Shown in pieces: positions 1 to 64,000 of a stretch of 64,000 nucleotides of DNA. A program made the position numbers and the translations under genes. This stretch comes from Deltaproteobacteria bacterium. GTDB taxonomy: Bacteria; Desulfobacterota; Syntrophorhabdia; Syntrophorhabdales; Syntrophorhabdaceae. The stretch is from positions 1-64,000 of the forward strand of contig JAKORG010000082.1 in assembly GCA_029777945.1 (NCBI GenBank). Reading direction: 5' to 3'. Within the stretch, counting starts at the first letter, position 1, and every line of letters starts with the position of its first letter. The notes beneath the pieces were generated by a model. The model was not told the DNA's origin. It did no database searches and saw nothing but the letters and a program-made list of their open reading frames with translations.

Positions 1-186
1 AAACAAAGGGGTATGGATGAAAAAGACATTGAGGCAAGGACATCCTTTCAGATACCCCTTTCGGAAAAAGAAAAATTAGCCGATTATGTGATATACAACA
101 ATGGAACAAAAAAGGATCTACAAACACAGGTTGATTTGCTTATAGAAAGGATAAGGGAATGGGAGGAAAAGGATGCATCTAAATGA
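1..186 (+). CDS. coaE: Dephospho-CoA kinase, C-terminal end (partial)
   Basis: Frame 1 is open from the first base to a TGA at 184-186. The peptide contains [11 protein letters not shown] followed by [11 protein letters not shown], which matches the C-terminal helices of CoaE, the last enzyme of coenzyme A synthesis (ATP-dependent 3'-phosphorylation of dephospho-CoA). The P-loop half lies outside the window. The last 14 bases overlap the start of rho, so the two are translationally coupled. Identification rests on about 60 residues and on knowledge of the family; the coaE-rho order is plausible for Desulfobacterota. Confidence 0.72.
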
Positions 187-1426
187 AATGAAAAGAAAAA
201 AAATAGGGGAGCTTACAAACCTTGCAAGGAGTTTGAATATTGAAAATGCAGCAGGATTAAAAAAACAAGAACTTATCTTTGCCATTTTGCAGGCTTTATT
301 AGATAAAAACGAATCTGTTTATGGTGAAGGTGTCTTAGAGGTCTTATCCGAGGGATTTGGGTTTTTAAGATCACCAGATTCGAATTATATGCCAGGACCA
401 GATGATATTTACATATCTCCATCTCAGATAAAAAGATTTGGATTAAGAACAGGAGATATTATATCAGGCCAGATAAGGCCTCCAAAGGATAATGAAAAGT
501 ATTTTGCCCTGCTTAGGGTAGAAACCATAAACTTCGATGACCCTGATGTGGCAAAGGATAAGATAATATTTGATAACCTAACCCCACTCTATCCAAACAA
601 AAGAATTACCCTTGAGACCACTCCTGACAATCTTTCCACAAGGGTAATGGACCTTTTTACACCCATTGGAAAGGGCCAAAGGGGTCTTATCGTTGCGCCT
701 CCGAGAACAGGAAAGACAATGTTACTCCAGCTTATAGCAAACAGCATAACACAAAACCACAAAGAGATAGACTTGATAGTGCTGCTTATAGACGAGAGAC
801 CTGAAGAGGTTACAGATATGCAGCGTTCTGTAAAGGGTGAAGTTATAAGCTCCACCTTTGATGAGCCTGCAACAAGGCATGTTCAGGTGGCAGAGATAGT
901 GATAGAAAAGGCAAAAAGGCTCGTAGAGCACAAACACGATGTGGTGATCTTGCTGGACAGCATTACAAGGCTTGCAAGGGCATACAATACCGTTGTGCCT
1001 TCAAGCGGTAAAATCCTTTCCGGCGGTATAGATGCCTCGGCCATGCAGAAACCAAGGAGGTTCTTCGGTGCTGCAAAAAACATTGAAGAAGGAGGGAGCC
1101 TTACGATCATCGCAACTGCCTTAATCGATACAGGCAGTAGGATGGACGAGGTAATCTTTGAAGAATTTAAAGGCACAGGCAACATGGAGATATACCTTGA
1201 CAGAAAACTTGCAGAGAAAAGGGTTTTTCCGGCTATAGATATTAATAAATCAGGCACAAGAAAGGAGGAATTATTAATAGAAAAAGACGATTTATCAAAG
1301 ATATGGCTTTTGAGGAAGGTGCTTCAACCTATGAATCCTGTTGAGGCAATGGAGTTTCTCCTTGAAAAGCTCGAAGATACAAAGACAAATAAGGAATTTT
1401 TAAATTCCATGAGTAAAGGAGGATAA
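173..1426 (+). CDS. rho: Transcription termination factor Rho
   Basis: Homohexameric RNA-dependent ATPase that ends transcription at Rho-dependent sites. At 417 residues it has the usual length. The N-terminal helical domain (1-45) begins [15 protein letters not shown], which supports the ATG at 173 over the one at 188. The cold-shock RNA-binding domain is at about 50-120 ([13 protein letters not shown]). The RecA-like motor has Walker A APPRTGKT at 175-182, the DERPEEV element at 207-213, Walker [11 protein letters not shown] at 257-266 and the Q-loop SSGKILSGG at 277-285. It lies between coaE and rpmE in a tightly packed operon. No insertion domain or missing catalytic residue is seen. Confidence 0.97.
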
Positions 1427-1428
1427 AG

Positions 1429-1635
1429 ATGAAAAAAAACATACACCCAAATTTAAAAAAGGCGATTGTAAAGTGTGCATGCGGCAATACGTTTGAAACC
1501 TTATCAACAAAAGAAAAGATAAACGTAGAAATCTGTGCAAAGTGTCATCCCATATTTACAGGAAAAGAAAAACGTATAGACTCTGCAGGCCAGGTGGAAA
1601 AATTTGAAAAACGTTATGGTAAAAAGACGGCATAA
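1429..1635 (+). CDS. rpmE: 50S ribosomal protein L31, zinc-binding form
   Basis: A 68-residue basic protein starting [10 protein letters not shown], the standard L31 opening. Cysteines at 16, 18, 36 and 39 (CxC and CxxC) mark the zinc-binding C+ type rather than the zinc-free paralogue. It sits in the 50S central protuberance and contacts the 30S head. Two bases separate it from rho, and its TAA shares a base with the ATG of prfA (TAATG). The rho-rpmE-prfA-prmC order is widely conserved, which supports every call in the set. C+ L31 is commonly controlled by zinc availability elsewhere, but no Zur site is evident here. Confidence 0.96.
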
Positions 1636-2699
1636 TGTTTGAGAAGTTAGATCAGATTAACGGACGATACGAAGAGCTTGAGGCAGAATTGGCAAGGTCA
1701 GAGACCCTTGCCAATATAGATACATATAAAAAACTGGCAAAGGAATATAACGACCTTAAAGAGATAGTAGAATTATATAGGGAATGGAAAAAAACGGATG
1801 AGGACATAAAAAATACACAGGCGCTTTTTGAAATAGAAAAAGATGAGGATATGAAGACCCTGATAAAGGAAGAGTTAGGAGAATTACAGGGCAAAAAAGA
1901 GGGGCTTGAAGAAAAACTAAAAGAACATCTTTTAAGGGCACACAGGGAAGATGTAAAGAGTATGTTCCTTGAGATAAGGGCAGGGGCAGGTGGAGAAGAG
2001 GCAGCCCTTTTTGCCCGGGAACTTTTCGGCATGTACATGAGGTTTGCCGAAAAGATGAAGTGGAAGACAGAGGTAATGTCCACAAGCCTTTCTGATTTAG
2101 GTGGGATTAAAGAAATTATAGTGCTTATTGATTCAAAAGATGCATACAATATGCTTAAATACGAAAGTGGGGTCCACAGGGTTCAGAGGGTGCCCATCAC
2201 AGAGGCACAGGGCAGGATACACACTTCAACGGTTACAGTAGCAGTGCTTCCAGAACCTGAAGAACTTGAAATTGATATAAACCCCGATGATTTAAGAATC
2301 GATGTATTCAGGTCAAGTGGACCAGGTGGTCAGCACGTAAATACCACAGATTCTGCCGTAAGAATAACCCACATACCAACAGGGATAGTTGTAACCTGTC
2401 AGGACGAGAAATCGCAGCATAAAAACAAGGCAAAGGCATTGAGGGTATTAAGGGCCCGTTTGAAAGAAAAAGTAGAGGCAGAAAAGGAAAAAGAGATATC
2501 CCAGGAAAGAAAAAAACAGGTAGGAACAGGAGATAGAAGTGAAAGGATAAGGACATACAATTTTCCCCAGGGCAGAATAACGGATCACAGGATTGGCCTT
2601 ACCCTGTATAAACTCCAGAATGTGCTCGATGGTGACATGGAAGACATTATAAATCCCCTGATTGCCCATTTTCAATCAGAGGCCTTAAAGGCAGGTTAA
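1635..2699 (+). CDS. prfA: Peptide chain release factor 1
   Basis: Recognises UAA and UAG stop codons and triggers peptidyl-tRNA hydrolysis. Its 354 residues are typical. The catalytic GGQ lies at about 231-233 in [10 protein letters not shown]. The region [15 protein letters not shown] is the RF1-type decoding neighbourhood; the tripeptide-like PIT replaces the usual PAT/PVT, and no RF2 SPF motif is present. RF1 is distinguished from RF2 also by the intact single-frame gene and the prmC neighbour, whose product methylates the GGQ glutamine. Start is the ATG overlapping the rpmE stop. Confidence 0.96.
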
Positions 2700-2703
2700 A
2701 CCA

Positions 2704-3537
2704 TTGACCATTTCAAGATTCATTTCAGAACTAAATGGCATCACATGGATCGAAAAGATTTCCCTTCTTTCTTTTGCTTTATCAAAAAAGAAAGAGGAGA
2801 TACTTATAAGACCCAATGAAACAGTTACAGAGGAAAAGTTTAAATTTATAAAGACCATTTTCGAAGAGAGAAAAAACGGCAGACCCTTAGCATATATTAT
2901 AAATTCCAAGGAATTTTTTTCAGAGGAATTTTTTGTAAACGAGTCAGTATTGATACCAAGACCTGAAACAGAGATACTTGTAGAAGAGGCAATTAATATT
3001 ATAAAAGATATGAAGGGGCAACCAAACATTATGGATGTAGGAACAGGCTCCGGGATAATAGGCATTATGATTGCAAAACATACAGGCATAAATGTTTTGT
3101 GTCTTGATATTTCAAGGGAAGCGCTTAGGGTGGCATCCAAAAACAGTGAAAGGATAGGCGTTAAAGGAAAGACCTTTTTTGTTTGTTCTGACCTTTTAGA
3201 AGCTATAAAAGAAAAAGGTAACTTTCATGTAATTGTGGCAAACCTTCCTTACGTAAAAACAAAAGAATGGGAACACTTAATGAAAGACGTAAGAGATTAT
3301 GAACCTAAGCTTGCCCTTTTAGGAGGAGAAGACGGCCTTGATCTGTATAGAAGGCTTATTAGAGTTTTAGAAAGGGTTATTTGTGAAAAAGGCTGGTTTT
3401 TATGTGAAGTTGGTGGGGCAGAACAGGCAGAAGTCGTTTCAGAAATGCTTATTCAAAAAGGTTTTAATGTTTCAAAAATAAAAGACTACAGCGGCACAGA
3501 AAGGATAATTAAGGCACAATGGATAAATTCGTTATAG
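2704..3537 (+). CDS. prmC: Release factor glutamine methyltransferase (HemK/PrmC)
   Basis: SAM-dependent N5-methylation of the GGQ glutamine in release factors. The 277 residues comprise an N-terminal helical domain and a Rossmann fold. SAM motif I is DVGTGSGIIG (about 111-120), and the family element IPRPETE lies just before it. The substrate-binding motif, normally NPPY, reads NLPY at 180-183, an unusual second position. The start appears to be TTG at 2704, five bases after the prfA stop. The gene overlaps murA by 19 bases. Adjacency to prfA makes the assignment firm despite the motif change. Confidence 0.93.
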   Translation: MTISRFISELNGITWIEKISLLSFALSKKKEEILIRPNETVTEEKFKFIKTIFEERKNGRPLAYIINSKEFFSEEFFVNESVLIPRPETEILVEEAINIIKDMKGQPNIMDVGTGSGIIGIMIAKHTGINVLCLDISREALRVASKNSERIGVKGKTFFVCSDLLEAIKEKGNFHVIVANLPYVKTKEWEHLMKDVRDYEPKLALLGGEDGLDLYRRLIRVLERVICEKGWFLCEVGGAEQAEVVSEMLIQKGFNVSKIKDYSGTERIIKAQWINSL

Positions 3538-4793
3538 AAGGCGGGGAAAGATTAATAGGCAATGTGAAAATCAGTGGTTCAAAAAACGCTGCCCTTCCCC
3601 TTCTTGCAGCAACACTTTTGCAAAAAGGTGTTTATGAAATAGAAAATGTCCCCAAATTAAAAGACATAAACACCATGTCAAAGCTCTTTGCCGTGCTCGG
3701 TGCCAAGGTTCAGTGGATAAAAGAGGGTGTTTTGCAGGTAGACACAACGGGAGTTGAAAATTATGTGGCACCCTATGAACTCGTAAAACAGATGAGGGCA
3801 TCTGTTCTTGTCCTTGGATCCCTAACAGGGGGGCTTAAGAGGGCTGTTGTGTCTTATCCGGGCGGTTGTGCCATAGGTGAAAGACCCATAAACCTCCACA
3901 TCCAAGGCCTTCAGGCATTGGGTTGTGATGTAACCATTAAAGAAGGCTATGTAGACGTAAATGCAAAAAAATTAAGAGGCGCAAGGATTAGATTCGATAC
4001 AACCACTGTAGGTGGCACAGAAAACATCATGATGGCAGCGGTTCTCGCAAAGGGAGAGACGATAATAGAAAATGCTGCCCGCGAACCAGAGGTGGTTGAC
4101 CTTGCCAGGATGCTAAAAAAAATGGGGGCAAAGATAGAAGGCGAAGGAACAGAGATAATAAAGATAAAGGGCGTTGACGAGCTTACACCCTGTAAATATA
4201 CGGTAATACCCGATAGGATTGAAACAGGCACATTTTTAATTGCCTGCGGTATTACAAGGGGAAACATTGTGATTGAAGGATGCAATCCTGGACACATAAA
4301 AGCACTCCTTGATAAATTAAAGGAAGCAGGTATGGACATCACAGAAGATGGGGATAAGATAAAGGCATCCATGACAAAGAAAAGGGCATCGGCAGTGGAT
4401 ATAAAGACCGCACCGTATCCTGGATTCCCAACAGACATGCAGGCCCAGATCATGGCGCTTATGACCGTATCAAGGGGCGTGAGTGCCATAACAGAGATCA
4501 TATTTGAAAACAGGATGATGCATGCCGCAGAACTAAGAAGGATGGGTGCGGACATTAAGGTTATAGGCAACACGGCCATTGTAAGGGGTGTAAAGATGTT
4601 ATCCGGTGCCAAGGTAATGGCAACGGATTTGCGGGCCAGCGCATCTTTAATACTCGCTGGCCTAACTGCATATGGAAAAACCGAGATATTGAGGATTTAT
4701 CACTTAGATAGAGGCTATGAGGCCATCGAAGAGAAGCTAAAAAAACTCGGTGCAAAGATTGAGAGGGTAAAGGATGAAGGTCTGGGAGCTTGA
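3519..4793 (+). CDS. murA: UDP-N-acetylglucosamine 1-carboxyvinyltransferase
   Basis: Transfers enolpyruvate from PEP to UDP-GlcNAc, the first committed step of peptidoglycan synthesis, in the cytoplasm. The 424 residues form the inverse beta/alpha EPSP-synthase-like fold. The N-terminal ISGSKNAALPL (Lys in GSKNA) binds substrate. The catalytic loop GGCAIGERPINLH carries Cys117, so this is the cysteine (fosfomycin-sensitive) type rather than the Asp variant. It overlaps prmC upstream and hisD downstream (20 bases), so it is translated within the same operon. Confidence 0.96.
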   Translation: MDKFVIEGGERLIGNVKISGSKNAALPLLAATLLQKGVYEIENVPKLKDINTMSKLFAVLGAKVQWIKEGVLQVDTTGVENYVAPYELVKQMRASVLVLGSLTGGLKRAVVSYPGGCAIGERPINLHIQGLQALGCDVTIKEGYVDVNAKKLRGARIRFDTTTVGGTENIMMAAVLAKGETIIENAAREPEVVDLARMLKKMGAKIEGEGTEIIKIKGVDELTPCKYTVIPDRIETGTFLIACGITRGNIVIEGCNPGHIKALLDKLKEAGMDITEDGDKIKASMTKKRASAVDIKTAPYPGFPTDMQAQIMALMTVSRGVSAITEIIFENRMMHAAELRRMGADIKVIGNTAIVRGVKMLSGAKVMATDLRASASLILAGLTAYGKTEILRIYHLDRGYEAIEEKLKKLGAKIERVKDEGLGA

Positions 4794-6054
4794 AAAAGAA
4801 AGAGAAGGGTTACTGGATTTTATACTGAAAACGAGACAGAAAACAAGGGTGGATGTGAGACATACAGTGGCTACTATAAGGGATGAGATTATTGCCAAAG
4901 GGGATGAGGCGATAAAAGGACTTTCTTATAAATATGATAACTGGGATAAAGATTACCCGTTAAAAATACTACCAGAAGAAATAGAAGAGGCCGCAAGAAA
5001 AATAGCCAAGAAAGATATCTCTGTTTTAAAGGGCATGATAAAGAATGTAAGGCTTTTTCATTTAAATCAGGGGGCAAAGAAGAGGATATATAAAAAAAGG
5101 GGCTTATCTGTTGTGGAAGATTATGTGCCTGTTGAAAAGGCCCTAATCTATGTCCCTGGCGGAAGGGCTGCATATCCATCTTCGTTGATTATGGCTGCGG
5201 TGCCTGCCCAGATCGCAGGGGTAAAACACATATACGTAACTACACCTACACCTTATGGCCTATTAAACCCTTATGTGGCAGCAGCATTACTTCTTCTGGG
5301 CATACAGGATGTATACCGGATAGGAGGCGCCCAGGCCATATATGCCTTTTCCTTAGGTATAGGCACAATACCTAAGGTTGATATTGTGGTGGGTCCTGGT
5401 AATGCCTTTGTAGATGAGGCAAAAAGGGATGTATACGGTTTTGTTGGTATTGATATGCTTGCAGGGCCTTCTGAGTTAATTATTCTAAACACAAAGGAAG
5501 CTTCGCCAGAATTTATTGCCAGAGACCTTTTTTCCCAGGCAGAACACGATGATATGGCAACGGTAGGTCTTTTTTCAAACTCAAAGACGATGATTAAGAA
5601 TGTCATGAAAGAGATGGAAAGGCTTATGGTAATAAACGAGAGAAAGGACATCATTGAAAGGGCAATAAAGGCAAACAGTTTTTTTGTGTATTTTAAAGAT
5701 ATTGAAAAGGCCATTGATTTTATAAACACCATAGCCCCGGAGCATATGGAATTTATAGGCGATGAAGGCCTTGCAGATAAAGTATTGTATCCTGGTATTA
5801 TCTATATAGGGGAGATGACCCCTGTTGCTATAGGTGATTATTACATCGGCACAAACCACATCCTGCCTACAGGAGGTGCAGGGAGATTTACAGCAGGATT
5901 ATCTGTAGATACATTTAGAAGGAGAAGGGTTAAGGTTAAGACGGACAACTTATTTTTTGAAAGATTTGGAGAAAAGGCAGAAAGGCTTGCAAGGATAGAG
6001 GGGCTTTTTGCCCACGCAGAGGCAATAAAGGCAAGAAAAGGGGTAAAAAGATGA
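4774..6054 (+). CDS. hisD: Histidinol dehydrogenase
   Basis: Last step of histidine synthesis: NAD-linked four-electron oxidation of L-histidinol to L-histidine, zinc-dependent. 426 residues. Recognisable motifs are the nucleotide site [18 protein letters not shown], the AGPSEL element that follows, and the paired catalytic Glu-His in APEHME. Near the C-terminus, [17 protein letters not shown] supplies a zinc-ligand histidine. The first 20 bases lie inside murA. It begins a short his block, hisD-hisG-hisB; the remaining his genes are outside the window. Confidence 0.97.
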
Positions 6055-47512: not shown

Positions 47513-47730
47513 GTTGCTGATGATGTGGTAGCTACTGCCATATTGGACAGACTATTACATCACTGCTATCCCTTCTTCATTCAAGGTAAAAGCTATCGTT
47601 TAAATGAAATGATGGAAAAAAAGAAGGAGCAATGGAAAACATGAAAAGAATTAGAAGGTAAGGGTTTATGAAAACAATGGGTGGACTAAAATTGGTGAAA
47701 ATAGTGGATTAGTTTTGGTGATAATTGACA
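47513..47730 (+). mobile_element. IS21-family right end with istB C-terminal scrap
   Basis: 47513-47644 encodes VATAILDRLLHHCYPFF and GKSYRLNEMMEKKKEQWK before TGA, the C-terminus of IstB, the IS21 helper ATPase. It is followed by two tandem half-similar blocks (AAAATTGGTGAAAAT; GTTTTGGTGATAATTGACA) typical of IS21 right ends. The end lies 17 bases from the stop codon of the helicase gene. Confidence 0.7.
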
Positions 47731-47746
47731 CCTTTTATTCTTCGTT

Positions 47747-50305
47747 TTAAATTTCACTCATATCTGCCGGTTCATTGACAAAGGTGGCCTCATACTCCTT
47801 GCGGCTAAGCACTGTATCGTATAAGCCGATGCGCTCTTCTGTATGTTTATTGACGCCTGTATACACCAAACTCGAATCCTCATAGCGCTTGAATTTGTAC
47901 ACAGCATCGTTCATAAGCGCACTGTTGAAGACATTGAGACTGACCAATAGCTCAAAATCCTCGACATCGAGCCCTGTAACCCGCTTAAACAACCCCGGCT
48001 CGAGTTTGGTAATCACATCGCGCAGAGTGTGCTCGCGGTAGTCGGTCAGATACATAAAGATGGGGATACGGGTGGCAAACTTGATGAGTTTTTCCTGAAT
48101 CATCTTCCGTTTGCTCTTGTATTCCTTTTCGGCTTCGGAGAGTTCCCGTTTTTCTTCCCGACTCAGTTGCCGGTCGTTGGCCTCCCGTTTGGCTTTTTTG
48201 ACCGCTTCCGACCTGTTGATGATAGTCTCGATGTCCTGATTCAGATTGCGGAAGCCCTCGATGCTCATTAACGCCTGCATGGCTCTTTCGTTAGCCATTA
48301 GCCTTGCCAGGGTTTCATTATCCACATTGACCAAAAGCGCGCTTTCCCAGCGGCGCGCAAGCAGAGTAGCCGTGGTGCCGCTCATGGCCATGTCCAGAAT
48401 GCCCGCTGCGTCAATCTGCTTCATGGAACTGCCGTCATAGGCCAGCACAGGCAGGAAACGGATGAACTCGGCCACTTTGGCTTCCGGGCTGGTTTTCTCA
48501 TCTACATTCAAGCGGCTGGCATATTCAGCAATCTGCCGCAAGGCGCGATCAGGGGCAAAGTCGAAGATGTAACATTCGTGTTTGATGATCTCTTCGGCAT
48601 CGGGATGCTGCCCATCGGGGTTATACACCGTCCACGGCGATTGTACCCGAAAGGCTGCCTGAAAGTAGGTTTCGGGACTTGAACAGTTGCGTAGCATAAA
48701 GATGCCCGTCCAGGGGCGGACGGTCACGCCGGTTGTCAGTTTGCCGCAGGTAAGGGTGATGGTTTTGGTTGTGAGCGGGTCGCCCATAGCCCGCAACACA
48801 GGTTGGAGCGCGTCTACACCGATACCCGCCTCCGGTCCCGCGGCGACGATTACCTTGTAATCGTGATAAAAACGGTTCTGCCGCTCATTCAGCAGGTTTG
48901 CCATGGCATGGCAGGAGGCGACGCTGGGCAAAAACCACAGGGTGTGCGAAAGAACATTGAGCAGGCGCCGATCCGAAAATGGCAGGGGCGGTCGCCGTTC
49001 CTTGCCGAGCTTCAAGTTATCCACCGCGGTGGGCAAGAAGGCGCCGCGAATCAAATCCAGCCACTTTTGCACTTCATCTGCGTATTTGAAGCGGGCAAAT
49101 GGGCCGTGCCCGACTGCCGTAAAGAAAATGTTTAGATCAAACTCGTTGAATTCGCCCTTGAGGGCAATCTCGCGGATTTCATCGGGCAGTTGGTAGGTGA
49201 GTAGCACTATGCGCGGCAGCATGGCGTAGGGATTGTCTTCCCCCTTCCAGTTCTCCTTAGCTTGCTGTTCGTCTGAGTAGGTCCAGTTGAAAATCTGCTC
49301 TTCAATGAACTCGCCTGAGGCGATGGCGCGGAAGGGTGTGCCGGAAAGATAGAGATAGTGGTTGCTTGTGATGGGCAGAAAATCTTCCAGCTCTTCATCA
49401 CGCTCTTTGAGAAATTCTGCCGCCTCGCCAAGCGCAAAGCGGATTTCCTCTTCCTCCTCACCCTCAAATAGATCCTTGGCTTTCTCGCGCCAGGCGCCAT
49501 AGTGGTATTCGTCGAAAATGACGCAGTCCCAATGTGTGGTATGGACCCATTCATTCTTGGTTTTGATGCCGCCGGTGCTGGGGTTTTTGCCCAAAAAATC
49601 TTGAAACGAACCAAAGCAGACGACCGGGCGGTTCTTATCATACTCTGGATCGCCTTGCCGGGGCAAGTCCTTGCCGGCGATAAACTGCCAGCCTGTAAAA
49701 TCTACATGGCTCTTTAAATCCGATTCCCAGGCGCTTTGCACGGCAGGTTTGAAGGTGACGACCAGTAGTTTTTTCCAGCCCATTTTCTTTGCCAGTTGGT
49801 AGGCGGCAAAGGTCTTGCCGAAGCGCATCTTGGCATTCCAGAGAAAGTGGGAAGGTTTGCCAGTGGTTTTGGGATTGAATTCGCGGAAGTAGGCTGCAGT
49901 CCGTTCAACGGCCGCGCGCTGTTCTGGGCGCATGGGAAAATTGAAGGTACGCTGTTCCTCGTTTAACTCGCCGCGTTGAATGGCTAGGATGGCGGCGCGC
50001 ACATCCTCCACTGTGCACTGAAACCACTCGCCTTCGAGATTCGGGATACTGCGCTGACGCAGATAGCGGTGCACGTCGCGGTCAGTAAAGGTCGTCCCGT
50101 CATTGCGCATGGCCGATTCTTCCAGCACGATGCGGTAGGGCGGATCCCCCGGACGGATAGTGGGGTACTGCGCTGCCACCCGCTCGCGAACGTCCTTGGT
50201 GGTGTAGCCGATCTTGAGCAGGCCCGCGTATTGGGGATGGGTGTCCTCGTAGGCGTAGATTTTGGGCGTCGCCTCAGGACGCAGAGGGAAGAAATCTTTA
50301 CTCAT
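47747..50305 (-). CDS. SF2 helicase with N-terminal T5orf172/GIY-YIG-like domain
   Basis: 852 residues. The N-terminal 115 residues (KIYAYEDTHPQYAGLLKIGY, then TTKDVRERV) look like a T5orf172/MUG113 GIY-YIG-type nuclease module. The SF2 motor follows: motif I KMRFGKTFAAYQLAK (about 171-185), DEYH box VIFDEYHYGAW, motif III LYLSGTPFRA. The C-terminal 200 residues are charged and helical. Clearly richer in G+C than the core genes. It overlaps the end of the broken DUF1016 gene. I infer a restriction-type translocase or nuclease working with the two methyltransferase genes. Confidence 0.85.
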   Translation of the reverse strand: MSKDFFPLRPEATPKIYAYEDTHPQYAGLLKIGYTTKDVRERVAAQYPTIRPGDPPYRIVLEESAMRNDGTTFTDRDVHRYLRQRSIPNLEGEWFQCTVEDVRAAILAIQRGELNEEQRTFNFPMRPEQRAAVERTAAYFREFNPKTTGKPSHFLWNAKMRFGKTFAAYQLAKKMGWKKLLVVTFKPAVQSAWESDLKSHVDFTGWQFIAGKDLPRQGDPEYDKNRPVVCFGSFQDFLGKNPSTGGIKTKNEWVHTTHWDCVIFDEYHYGAWREKAKDLFEGEEEEEIRFALGEAAEFLKERDEELEDFLPITSNHYLYLSGTPFRAIASGEFIEEQIFNWTYSDEQQAKENWKGEDNPYAMLPRIVLLTYQLPDEIREIALKGEFNEFDLNIFFTAVGHGPFARFKYADEVQKWLDLIRGAFLPTAVDNLKLGKERRPPLPFSDRRLLNVLSHTLWFLPSVASCHAMANLLNERQNRFYHDYKVIVAAGPEAGIGVDALQPVLRAMGDPLTTKTITLTCGKLTTGVTVRPWTGIFMLRNCSSPETYFQAAFRVQSPWTVYNPDGQHPDAEEIIKHECYIFDFAPDRALRQIAEYASRLNVDEKTSPEAKVAEFIRFLPVLAYDGSSMKQIDAAGILDMAMSGTTATLLARRWESALLVNVDNETLARLMANERAMQALMSIEGFRNLNQDIETIINRSEAVKKAKREANDRQLSREEKRELSEAEKEYKSKRKMIQEKLIKFATRIPIFMYLTDYREHTLRDVITKLEPGLFKRVTGLDVEDFELLVSLNVFNSALMNDAVYKFKRYEDSSLVYTGVNKHTEERIGLYDTVLSRKEYEATFVNEPADMSEI

Positions 50306-50692
50306 CGCTTAACAACCTCTCCAGTTCTGCCTGCAATTGTTGCTTATCGAAAATATAAAATAGTGGCTCCAACTTAATAGGTGAGACAGTGTCTCACTTT
50401 TTGGGAATGTCAAATACAACTTGCGCATATAGACCAGATTGGATCGGCTAAATCCCTTGCCAAACTCGGCTGTGAGATCGCAGGAGAGCCGGTCTAACAG
50501 TTCGCTGCCATATTCCGCCTTGATGTTGCCCTTTTGTTCAAACTCCACGATGTGGCGATCAATGTGCCAGTAGGTCTGCACCAAAATGGTATTGACCGAA
50601 CGGTCTGCCTGCTCCCTGCCGCGGCGCAACAAATCGCCTATCTGTTCTTTAAGCTGCTGATAAGTGTTTATGGAGAGGACATCACTCATCAT
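50298..50692 (-). pseudogene. DUF1016 (YhcG-type) nuclease gene with internal deletion
   Basis: The reading frame from the ATG near 50692-50689 encodes an intact DUF1016 N-terminal domain (QLKEQIGDLLRRGREQADRS; FGKGFSRSNLVYMRKLYLTF; LSHLLSWSHYF). It then runs out of frame to a stop at 50309. In the shifted frame FDKQQLQAELERLLSDE ends at TAA 50300-50298, matching the C-terminal tail of this family. The PDDEXK nuclease domain between is gone (about 180-200 codons). The true start overlaps the methyltransferase stop. Confidence 0.75.
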
Positions 50693-52241
50693 CCTCATCT
50701 CCGTTAGTAGCGGTATTGGTTTGCTCGCCGTTGTCTCCAACATTACGAATTCTCGAATCGATCAACTTCCATTCGTCATCTGTGATTCCCCAACGTTCAC
50801 ACAGCATTTCATCAGTGTATATGCATTCGTATTTGCCTAAATCGGGAACAAGGAAGAAGTTTTCTCTTGTAACATCTTGAGACATAACTGTCTGTAATAA
50901 AAGAAACCTAACCGTCTTGGTAAATAGGTAAGACTTAAACGAAAGAACTTCGGATTCCAAATCAAAAGCACAAGCAACAAGCCACGTCTCTGTACAACAC
51001 TCGCCAGGTTTAGCAATTCTAGTATTTCCTTCGTAGTAAAATGCGATTGGCTCAGAAAAGTCGGTCTGTCCTGCTATAGGAGCACGTGGAATTAGCAATT
51101 TCCACTTTGTCAACAGATTTCTATCATCGCGCACATCCGCGGGATCGGCAAAACTCAGCCCAATGCGCTGTTTGAACCAACAAGGAATTCCCGTTTCCTT
51201 CGGGGTGTAATCACCACTCAGTCCAAATGGCTTGCGCGGCGAAATTAGATCGCTTAAGCGTTTGCCTCCATTTTCATTCTTCGCAAGCACTTTTCGCACG
51301 ATAGGAATAGCACGACTATCACGAATAAAAATTCCAAACTCATCCAATTGCCTACTTAAGATATATTTTTGTCCATCAAAGAAGTTAGTAACCTCGCATA
51401 GACCCTTTGAATCTCTTTCCCACAAGAAATAGCATATACCTCCAGCAATATCTACACCAGGGAAAACACTTGAACTGTTTGGGAAATCTACAAGTTTTCT
51501 AATTTGCTGATCCGCAAGCATCTTTGCTCTAAACTCATCTAGACCCTTCCCCCCGGCAAACCACCTTGACGGGATGATCATCGTCAAAAACCGGGGCTGG
51601 AGTTTTTTCGCCTGCTCGACAAACTTATGATAGATCGGCGTAGCGCTTCTTCCGTAGCCCCCATCACTCAACTGATACGGCGGATTGCCGATAATAACAT
51701 CGAATTGCATATTAAAAATCTCCTCCGGTTTATTGGTGTGAATAAATTCGTAGGCGTGGCTTTCCAATTCCGGGCCGCGGTCGTATTCGCTCTGGCTGGC
51801 ACCGCACCAGATACAGCGCCCGTTTTGCCAGGTATGCTCAATGCGCCGGAAGCGGATGTTTCCCTGTTCATTGGCAAAGCCTTCCACCACCGAGTATGTG
51901 CCGTTAGCCGTTTTCGAGCAATAGACCGTGCGGCGGGAGAGCAGCGCCGTGATTTCGGTAATGGCAATGCCGAAGAGCTGCCTGGTGAAGATGTGGTTGA
52001 TGCGCGCCTGTCGGTCTGGAATGTGTTCCTCCAGCCCAACAAGTAGCCGCCTGGCAATCTCGCGTAAGAAAACGCCCGATTTACAGCAAGGGTCAAGAAA
52101 GGTGGCGTTCGGGTCGCGCCAGAGGTCCTGCGGCAGTAGGTCGAGCATCTGATTGACGATGTTGGGTGGGGTGAAGACCTCATCACTACTGAGGTTGGCC
52201 AGACACGAAAGCACATCGGGGTTGTAATTGCTAATCGCCAT
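50682..52241 (-). CDS. Eco57I-type N6-adenine DNA methyltransferase
   Basis: 519 residues from the ATG at 52241 (a GTG three codons earlier is possible). Opening block [18 protein letters not shown] and motif I region [15 protein letters not shown] (unusual: DPxxxSG rather than DPxxGxG). Catalytic motif IV is [17 protein letters not shown] cysteine pair (WCGAS and the preceding C) lies between. The C-terminal half ([20 protein letters not shown] onward) resembles target-recognition regions. Full length. Overlaps the preceding methylase gene by 11 bases. Confidence 0.88.
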
Positions 52242-52911
52242 AGGCTTCACTCACCTTGAGGAAATGGACCAAAGGATAACTGCGTGTTTCCGTCGGGACA
52301 AAAACCCGCTCGCCCCGGTCGGACACATAGACATTATTTTTTGTAAACAAATCATCCTGCTGAGTAAACTCATTAGGGAAGAGTTCTGCAAAAACAAAAT
52401 CGCGGCGTTTAATCAGGCTGTTGTGTAATGGGAAAGACCACTCGGCAAAGATAATCTGATGGGTTTCTGGTCCAACCGTCTTTAACTCCAATGCGTCGCC
52501 CCAGATGATGTTCTTGGCTAAGATGTAGCACAGCGTGCGGCGGCAGGCCTCTTTGGTTTTTGCGTTAAACAGCGCGGTGTAGCGTTCATCGGCAATCTCA
52601 AACAACTGTTGGCGGCAGGCGATAACGTTGTCTTCCAAAATATCAATACCGTAAATCGCAGAAACTGCCAGCACCATATTACGCTCAAAATCGAGCTGAC
52701 TCCGCCGGTAGGTCTTTTCCACCACATCTAATTTGCGGCGCAAAATTTCGGTCAAAAAATTTCCTGTGCCGCAAGCCGGCTCCAAAAAGCGCGAATCAAT
52801 GCGCTCGGTTTCCTGCTTGACCAAATCGAGCATGGCATTCACGATTTCCGGCGGGGTGTACACCTCACCGTAATCTCTTACCCGCTGTTTGGATCTTATT
52901 TGGTTTTTCAT
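52231..52911 (-). CDS. Partner DNA methyltransferase-like protein (motif I only)
   Basis: 226 residues from [20 protein letters not shown]; an ATG at 52926 or 52941 is possible, but a start at 52998 lies upstream of the promoter. Contains [18 protein letters not shown] and SAM motif [18 protein letters not shown] find no NPPY-type motif IV, so alone it is unlikely to methylate DNA; the C-terminal 60 residues differ from Eco57I methylases. First gene of the cluster, directly coupled to the full methyltransferase. Role could be regulatory or as a heteromeric SAM-binding partner. Confidence 0.82.
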
Positions 52912-52969
52912 ACTCCTCTGGTTCATCTCTGGGGCTAACATTATTTTTAATTTTTCAATATATGGAGCG

Positions 52970-52998
52970 ATTATATAAATGATAATGGGTGATGTCAA
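52970..52998 (-). promoter_or_regulatory. Consensus promoter of the restriction-like cluster
   Basis: On the minus strand TTGACA (52998-52993), exactly 17 bases, TATAAT (52975-52970): both hexamers perfect. Expected transcription start near 52963. This fixes the first coding start downstream of that point. Confidence 0.8.
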
Positions 52999-53070
52999 GA
53001 TTTCTTTAGCTTAAACCTTTGATTTTTATTATCATTTCAATATTGATAGTTTATTGTGCTTGCGAATTAT

Positions 53071-53691: not shown

Positions 53692-53766
53692 TGGTGGAGG
53701 TGAAGGGGATTGAACCCTCGACCCCCTCGTTGCGAACGAGGTGCTCTCCCGCTGAGCTACACCCCC
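53692..53766 (-). tRNA. tRNA-Ala (anticodon CGC)
   Basis: On the minus strand the 75-base sequence folds into a full cloverleaf: acceptor GGGGGTG with CACCTCC, anticodon stem CCTCG/CGAGG around loop TTCGCAA, T-arm GGGTTCAATCCC, and encoded CCA. The G3-U70 wobble pair is the alanine identity element. It reads GCG codons. Its 3' end faces the plasticity zone. Confidence 0.95.
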
Positions 53767-63171: not shown

Positions 63172-63204
63172 ATCCTCCCCTTTTTATTAGTTTCTTTGAC
63201 TTCA

Positions 63205-63912
63205 ATGGACACTCATGGTAAGAATACATGGATGATACCCATAAAAGATAATATAAAAACACATTCATTTCCCATTATAACAGCATGCATTATTGTTGTA
63301 AATATTTTAATTTTTCTATGGCAAAAAATTACCCTTACTCCTTCTGAAAACGAATTTATAGTCAGATATTACGGGATTATGCCCTACGACTTTTTTATGG
63401 CCCTTACTAAAAAACATGAGTTGATACCTTACAACATAATGACAATATTTACATCCATGTTTTTACATGGCGGTTTTTTTCACGTAGGTGGTAATATGCT
63501 TTATCTTTTTATTTTTGGAAAATCCGTTGAAGATGCCATAGGCCACAAAAGATTTTTTGTATTTTATTTTTTATCCGGCATAGCTGCTGCTGTCTTTCAA
63601 CTTTTATATGAGCCAGATTCACAGATACCCATGATAGGGGCAAGCGGAGCAGTTTCAGGTATACTTGGTGCCTACTTGATCCTTTTTCCCTATGCAAAGA
63701 TAGTAACCATGCTGATTATTCTAATTTTTATCAAGTTTGTTCAATTGCCTGCAATTTTACTCCTTACTTTATGGTTTTTTATGCAGGTGTTATATTCCCA
63801 TACAGATGGAGTTGCATGGTATGCCCATATAGGTGGTTTTATATTTGGACTACTTGTAATAAAATTATTTGGCAGGAGAAAATTTGTTAAAAGTAAAAGA
63901 CTTGAAACTTGA
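63205..63912 (+). CDS. Rhomboid-family intramembrane serine protease
   Basis: 235 residues from the ATG at 63205 (TTG at 63196 and ATG at 63232 also possible; no clear ribosome site). Six or so membrane segments. Motifs: GGFFHVGGNMLYLFIFGKSVE, catalytic Ser in GASGAVSGILGAY, and catalytic His in AWYAHIGGFIFGLL. Cleaves membrane proteins within the bilayer; substrate unknown. Divergent from galT with only 33 bases between. Confidence 0.93.
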   Translation: MDTHGKNTWMIPIKDNIKTHSFPIITACIIVVNILIFLWQKITLTPSENEFIVRYYGIMPYDFFMALTKKHELIPYNIMTIFTSMFLHGGFFHVGGNMLYLFIFGKSVEDAIGHKRFFVFYFLSGIAAAVFQLLYEPDSQIPMIGASGAVSGILGAYLILFPYAKIVTMLIILIFIKFVQLPAILLLTLWFFMQVLYSHTDGVAWYAHIGGFIFGLLVIKLFGRRKFVKSKRLET

Positions 63913-63917
63913 AGGAA

Positions 63918-64000
63918 ATGTTTCACGTGAAACAATACAGGGCATTACTCATAAATCCTTATGTCTATGATTTTGCTGCGTACAGCTTCTGGTCTACCCC
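63918..64000 (+). CDS. Start of a probable B12-binding radical SAM protein (partial)
   Basis: ATG at 63918 with GAAGGA upstream, open to the window edge: MFHVKQYRALLINPYVYDFA and AYSFWSTP. The phrase LLINPYVYDFAAYSFW is typical of the opening of cobalamin-binding radical SAM proteins, but the cluster site is outside the window. Its start codon is part of a parS palindrome. Assignment rests on 27 residues. Confidence 0.55.
   Translation, partial: MFHVKQYRALLINPYVYDFAAYSFWST
63919..63934. promoter_or_regulatory. parS-type centromere site
   Basis: TGTTTCACGTGAAACA, a perfect 16-base palindrome identical to the general bacterial parS consensus bound by ParB. It overlaps the ATG and first five codons of the rightward gene. 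Chance occurrence of the full palindrome in 64 kb is very unlikely. ParB loading sites cluster near the replication origin. Confidence 0.85.

What the first reader, a model, noticed from the sequence alone, without database searches (positions are those of the whole stretch)
63919..63934. Perfect parS site built into the start of a gene at the window edge
TGTTTCACGTGAAACA matches the ParB-binding consensus exactly. It overlaps the start codon, so the encoded protein begins MFHVKQ and ParB binding could affect its transcription. It also gives a physical marker that this side of the window points to the origin region.
Basis: partly seen in the sequence, partly recalled or inferred. Interest (0 to 1): 0.65.

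Follow-up and report, generated by a model that had tools for sequence, protein, structure and literature searches.

The report
Chromosomal centromere site at gene start

Summary
TGTTTCACGTGAAACA is at 63919-63934 and is the only copy with 0-1 mismatch in the 2.4 Mb Syntrophorhabdaceae genome (chance about 0.001). It is almost certainly a working chromosomal parS. A parA-parB operon is present, and its ParB carries the parS-type specificity residues (R and G). Nineteen of 46 genomes of the order keep the 14-bp core at the start of the same B12-binding radical SAM gene. The core survives changes of reading frame, of outer bases and of start codon, so the DNA is conserved, not the peptide. Where it is absent there, relatives usually carry parS elsewhere; sites sharing a contig with dnaA lie 8-59 kb from it.

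(1) The origin is not to the right: the window's left end joins the dnaA-dnaN-gyrB contig (12-bp overlap, coaE reads through), so dnaA is 4-5 kb left of base 1, about 68 kb from parS. parAB is on another contig, at least 100 kb from parS, and shares a contig with dnaA or parS in none of 42 genomes. (2) The protein more likely starts at the GTG in the middle of parS (MKQYRALL) than at MFHVKQ. Control of this gene by ParB is possible but unproven.

The parts
63919..63934 (.). parS, 16-bp perfect palindrome TGTTTCACGTGAAACA (invariant core in relatives: GTTTCACGTGAAAC, 63920-63933)
63927..64000 (+). 5' part of a B12-binding radical SAM gene; most likely start GTG at 63927 in the centre of parS; gene continues to about 65270 on the contig (447 aa)
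63918..63920 (+).
63912..63916 (+). Shine-Dalgarno-like AAGGA, 10 nt before the GTG
   Evidence: direct reading
63196..63912 (+). rhomboid-family membrane protease gene, upstream neighbour; its stop codon ends 6 bases before parS; synteny kept in the order
173..1426 (+). rho gene at the left end of the window; in six relatives it directly follows dnaA-dnaN-gyrB, so it marks the origin side
1..186 (+). 3' part of coaE, whose 5' part is at the left end of contig C75 (dnaA-dnaN-gyrB); supports the join and puts dnaA 3982-5298 bp left of base 1

Best explanation
The 16-mer is the chromosomal parS of this bacterium, probably its only strong one. ParB, made from a parAB operon elsewhere on the chromosome, would load at the palindrome as a CTP-dependent clamp, spread over the flanking rhomboid, radical SAM, galT and glgA genes, and let ParA pull the origin region apart after replication. 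The site lies about 68 kb from dnaA, on the right-hand side of the origin. It spans the translation start of a B12-binding radical SAM gene, which is tolerated because its centre, CACGTG, supplies a GTG start codon. It has been kept there as DNA, most likely since before the three families of the order split, and was lost or moved in some genera. Shown: sequence, uniqueness, conservation of DNA over peptide, position relative to dnaA, presence of a parS-type ParB. Inferred: binding, spreading, segregation, and any local effect on expression.
For: Exact consensus and unique in 2.4 Mb. ParB on C88 (E 1e-54 to TIGR00180) aligns with parS-binding Spo0J/ParB structures and has R (idRstvan) and G (ltyGhar) at the two positions that fix parS over NBS (PMC7383237). 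34 of 46 genomes of the order have the exact 14-bp core, 1-4 copies each, none in the reversed control. Core within 40 bp of the radical SAM start in 18 genomes plus G016, in all three families. In the 15 loci read as F-H-V-K every codon is TTT-CAC-GTG-AAA (chance about 1e-13 from codon use if independent; relatedness makes this optimistic). In the sister clade (L045, L047, L048) the core is read in another frame (V-S-R-E-T) with outer bases G..C or G..T, and in L042 it lies upstream of a new ATG. 33 parS sites that share a contig with dnaA lie 7.8-58.5 kb from it. Contig join by 12-bp overlap and a 202-aa coaE read through it.
Against: No binding data. In 4 genomes of the order no parS with 0-1 mismatch was found (G001, G022, G030, G035), perhaps from incomplete assembly or weaker sites. 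parAB is not close to the site. 68 kb is somewhat farther from dnaA than in relatives, though well within distances tolerated in P. aeruginosa (competence zone about 650 kb around oriC, PMC5098823).
Confidence: 0.9

Rival explanations
1. parS here also works as an operator: ParB bound across the translation start blocks or tunes expression of the radical SAM gene, which is why the site is kept exactly at this place.
For: Same gene start used over three families, and independently placed or kept at the start of a homologous gene behind mnmE in distant lineages L024, L065, L087. Precedent: ParB represses promoters next to parS3/parS4 in P. aeruginosa (PMC5521831).
Against: The rhomboid stop codon is just upstream of parS and no strong promoter match lies between the two genes. 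In P. aeruginosa the intragenic parS1/parS2 had no effect at native ParB level. About half of the genomes have lost the site from this gene and keep parS elsewhere.
Confidence: 0.15
2. The conserved stretch is an RNA hairpin that controls translation of the radical SAM gene.
For: The palindrome can form a 5-6 bp hairpin with an ACGU loop over the start codon.
Against: Folding is no better than shuffles (z -0.2 and -0.95). The outer pair is often broken (C..A, T..C, G..T) while loop and core never vary. Genomes lacking it here usually carry parS elsewhere; those on dnaA's contig lie 8-59 kb from it.
Confidence: 0.03
3. Conserved peptide MFHVK(H/Q) of the enzyme, resembling parS by chance.
For: 15 loci share FHVK in frame.
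Against: Other frames and non-coding placements keep the DNA and lose the peptide; synonymous sites fixed; other orthologues simply start at MK-x-ALLINP.
Confidence: 0.01
4. One reading: the origin and parAB lie to the right of the window.
For: Cumulative GC skew of the contig has a local minimum near 70 kb.
Against: dnaA and gyrB join the left end; no dnaA or ParB in 88 kb to the right; skew is again positive at 1-20 kb, so the 20-70 kb dip fits gene orientation or an inversion better.
Confidence: 0.03

Closest known systems
Chromosomal parS of ParABS systems (Bacillus subtilis, Caulobacter, Pseudomonas aeruginosa)
   Same: Identical 16-bp palindrome; origin-proximal; genome has ParA and a ParB with R/G parS-type residues
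   Different: Single exact site, spanning the translation start of a radical SAM gene about 68 kb from dnaA; parAB not in the same neighbourhood
P. aeruginosa parS3/parS4 (ParB-repressed promoters, PMC5521831)
   Same: parS beside the start of genes near oriC
   Different: Those are intergenic at promoters; here the site closely follows an upstream stop codon and covers the translation start; no expression data
Noc binding site NBS (TATTTCCCGGGAAATA)
   Same: Related palindrome bound by a ParB paralogue
   Different: Centre is CACGTG, not CCCGGG; the ParB has R/G, not Q/R
parS at the mnmE/parA neighbourhood in other members of the phylum (L018-L024, L065, L087)
   Same: Same exact motif; in L024, L065, L087 also at the start of a homologous radical SAM gene
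   Different: There the gene follows mnmE or the site precedes parAB; here it follows a rhomboid gene

Membership tests
Chromosomal parS | Match to the TGTTTCACGTGAAACA consensus | tested here: met
   0 mismatches
Chromosomal parS | More than chance, few copies per genome | tested here: met
   1 copy against 0.0003-0.0009 expected; relatives 1-4 copies, reversed control 0
Chromosomal parS | Cognate ParA and ParB in the genome, ParB with parS-type residues R173/G201 | tested here: met
   parA-parB at C88:24064-25630; R and G by alignment with ParB structures
Chromosomal parS | Located in the origin domain | tested here: met
   About 68 kb from dnaA by contig join and synteny
Chromosomal parS | Bound by ParB in the cell and needed for segregation | not testable with these tools
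   Needs ChIP-seq, binding assay, mutant
Classical ori-parAB-parS cluster | parAB next to parS and oriC | tested here: not met
   parB shares a contig with dnaA or parS in none of the 42 genomes of the order with a clear parB; at least about 105 kb from parS in this genome, at least 162 kb in G038
Noc binding site | CCCGGG centre and a Noc-type ParB (QKKR) | tested here: not met
   Centre CACGTG; ParB residues R..G
ParB-regulated promoter | parS at a promoter with ParB-dependent expression | tested here: inconclusive
   No strong promoter match between rhomboid and radical SAM; expression not testable

The most novel reading that the evidence does not exclude
In Syntrophorhabdales the chromosomal centromere has been built into the translation start of a B12-binding radical SAM gene and kept there through order-level evolution because ParB occupancy there couples expression of this enzyme to chromosome segregation, while parAB itself has left the origin region.
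Probability: 0.12. Interest if true: 0.65.

Novelty: new member of a known kind. Interest (0 to 1): 0.36.

Why it matters
It fixes the position of the centromere and of the origin in a little-studied syntrophic lineage. It shows a parS conserved as DNA across a translation start through changes of reading frame, and documents a ParABS layout in which parS stays near the origin but parAB does not. A single strong parS with parAB far away gives a simple natural case for asking what the usual parAB-parS linkage is for.

Tried and rejected
RNA hairpin reading: folding no better than shuffles, outer pair not conserved as a pair. Peptide conservation: contradicted by frame-shifted and non-coding copies. 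Search of plasmids with the last 1 kb of the window: no match. GC skew of the contig as origin locator: inconclusive, follows gene strand, with a dip at 20-70 kb. Search for ParA, ParB, dnaA and gyrB near the radical SAM gene in distant relatives: only two loci with gyrB or dnaA, both with the rhomboid-linked type of the gene. Literature: no paper in the library joins Syntrophorhabdus and ParB. The careful (bootstrapped) tree did not finish; the quick tree was used.

Full report
The observation. The window ends in ...TTGAAGGAAATGTTTCACGTGAAACAATACAGG..., with TGTTTCACGTGAAACA at 63919-63934. The genome that holds the window (G000, 2,399,553 bp in 102 contigs; window = contig C34:1-64000, contig 151,861 bp) has no other copy with 0 or 1 mismatch. 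About 0.0003-0.0009 exact copies are expected by chance.

What is around it. Upstream is a rhomboid-family protease gene (63196-63912, Pfam PF01694), whose stop codon ends 6 bases before parS. Downstream is a gene with a B12-binding and a radical SAM domain (PF02310, PF04055); it reaches no NCBIfam equivalog cut-off, so its substrate is unknown. Its closest relatives are Syntrophorhabdaceae/Syntrophorhabdales genomes, in which rhomboid-radical SAM synteny is kept.

Which start codon. The Shine-Dalgarno-like AAGGA (63912-63916) is 1 nt from that ATG but 10 nt from GTG 63927, in the middle of parS. In orthologues the codon at the ATG position is ACG (L037), GCG (L039, L141, L148), TTG, CTG or GTG, whereas the central GTG is present in all copies read in this frame. 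Orthologues without parS start at the corresponding MK-x-ALLINP. I therefore favour GTG 63927 (about 65-70%).

DNA, not peptide, is conserved. Of 46 genomes of the order, 34 have the exact core GTTTCACGTGAAAC (1-4 copies; reversed-pattern control 0), and 43 have the radical SAM gene. In 18 genomes, plus G016 where a contig breaks inside the gene, the core lies within 40 bp of the radical SAM start, in all three families. In 15 distinct loci it is read as F-H-V-K, always with the codons TTT-CAC-GTG-AAA. In the sister clade of the window's gene (L045, L047, L048) the same core is read in another frame (ATGAAGGTTTCACGTGAAACC, M-K-V-S-R-E-T). In L042 it lies upstream of a separate ATG, and in L149 it is displaced by 17 bp. 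The core does not vary in these copies while the outermost bases do. Several genera have no copy there. In G007 the site is present with a broken core (CATTTCACGTGAAACAT) while another copy exists elsewhere. Sites that share a contig with dnaA lie 7.8-58.5 kb from it (33 sites, 20 genomes, median 14.3 kb). On the quick tree of 93 radical SAM proteins the parS label needs 6 changes, against 17.5 for shuffled labels.

Distant lineages. Three homologues of about 35-39% identity (L024, L065, L087) also carry an exact parS at their start; there the gene follows mnmE (yidC-jag-mnmE in L065 and L087), the neighbourhood where parS often lies in this phylum (L018, L021, L023; parA next to parS in L019, L020, L022). 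Whether parS travelled with the gene or settled more than once at a convenient start codon is open.

Where the origin is. In six relatives the order is dnaA-dnaN-gyrB-rho-prfA-prmC-murA-hisD (dnaN not picked up in two). rho-prfA-prmC-murA-hisD are window 173-6054, and dnaA-dnaN-gyrB are at the end of contig C75. The left ends of C75 and C34 share an exact 12-bp overlap and a complete 202-aa coaE reads through the join. So dnaA lies 3982-5298 bp to the left of window base 1 and 67.9-69.2 kb from the parS centre. [quoted passage not shown] PMC7022226) and within the competence zone measured in P. aeruginosa (about 650 kb around oriC; PMC5098823).

Where parAB is. parA-parB are adjacent on C88 (parA L009:9064-9831, parB L009:9824-10630), near ftsK, lolA and TRAP transporter genes, not mnmE (mnmE is on C102). 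C34 has no dnaA and no ParB. From contig lengths parS and parB are at least about 105 kb apart here (87.9 kb to the right end of C34 plus 16.8 kb on C88), and at least 162 kb in G038. In none of the 42 genomes with a strong parB match do parB and dnaA or parS share a contig. ParB is canonical: it matches Thermus Spo0J (1vz0) and Caulobacter ParB (6t1f) at 4e-55 and 2e-46, and it has R and G at the two positions that are absolutely conserved in parS-binding ParB (PMC7383237).

How it most likely works. Established knowledge of ParABS: ParB dimers load at parS with CTP, slide and bridge over about 10-20 kb, and ParA moves the complex. Here that would cover rhomboid, radical SAM, galT and glgA. 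A regulatory effect on the radical SAM gene is possible. In P. aeruginosa ParB represses promoters next to intergenic parS3/parS4 but, at native level, not genes at intragenic parS1/parS2 (PMC5521831). Here the site is within what looks like one transcription unit, so I rate it unlikely to be the reason the site is kept. A simpler reason is that CACGTG supplies a GTG and the flanks tolerate translation in several frames, so a start region is an easy home for a parS.

Verdict. An ordinary, real chromosomal parS with unusually well-documented conservation at one gene start.

Noticed in passing
window 47700-53000: Stretch of about 51% G+C in a 38% G+C contig, with a helicase-like ORF (47747-50305) and two N6-methylase-like ORFs (50682-52998), close to a tRNA-Ala(CGC) at 53692; looks like an acquired restriction-modification island (from reading the ORFs only).
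   Followed up: no
window 20000-64000 and contig C34 to about 70000: GC skew is negative here and positive on both sides; may reflect gene strand or an inversion between about 20 and 70 kb that moved the parS block away from dnaA and turned it round relative to G014, G018 and G024.
   Followed up: partly
genomes G003, G007, G014, G016: 31-34 ParB-domain matches per genome against 1-8 in the other genomes of the order, mostly open frames of about 310-330 aa matching profile positions 23-117: an amplified ParB-like family of unknown role.
   Followed up: no
G041:C147:11465-12488: Six parS sites (0-1 mismatch) within about 1 kb, 8-9 kb from dnaA, in family f2 of the order.
   Followed up: no
L024, L065, L087: Distant homologues of the radical SAM gene directly follow mnmE and also carry an exact parS at the start codon.
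   Followed up: partly
L004:4268-8287 (C34:65.3-69.3 kb): Polyamine cluster (carboxynorspermidine decarboxylase and dehydrogenase, agmatinase, arginine decarboxylase-like) on the minus strand next to the parS-bearing gene; assignments from reading the ORFs only.
   Followed up: no
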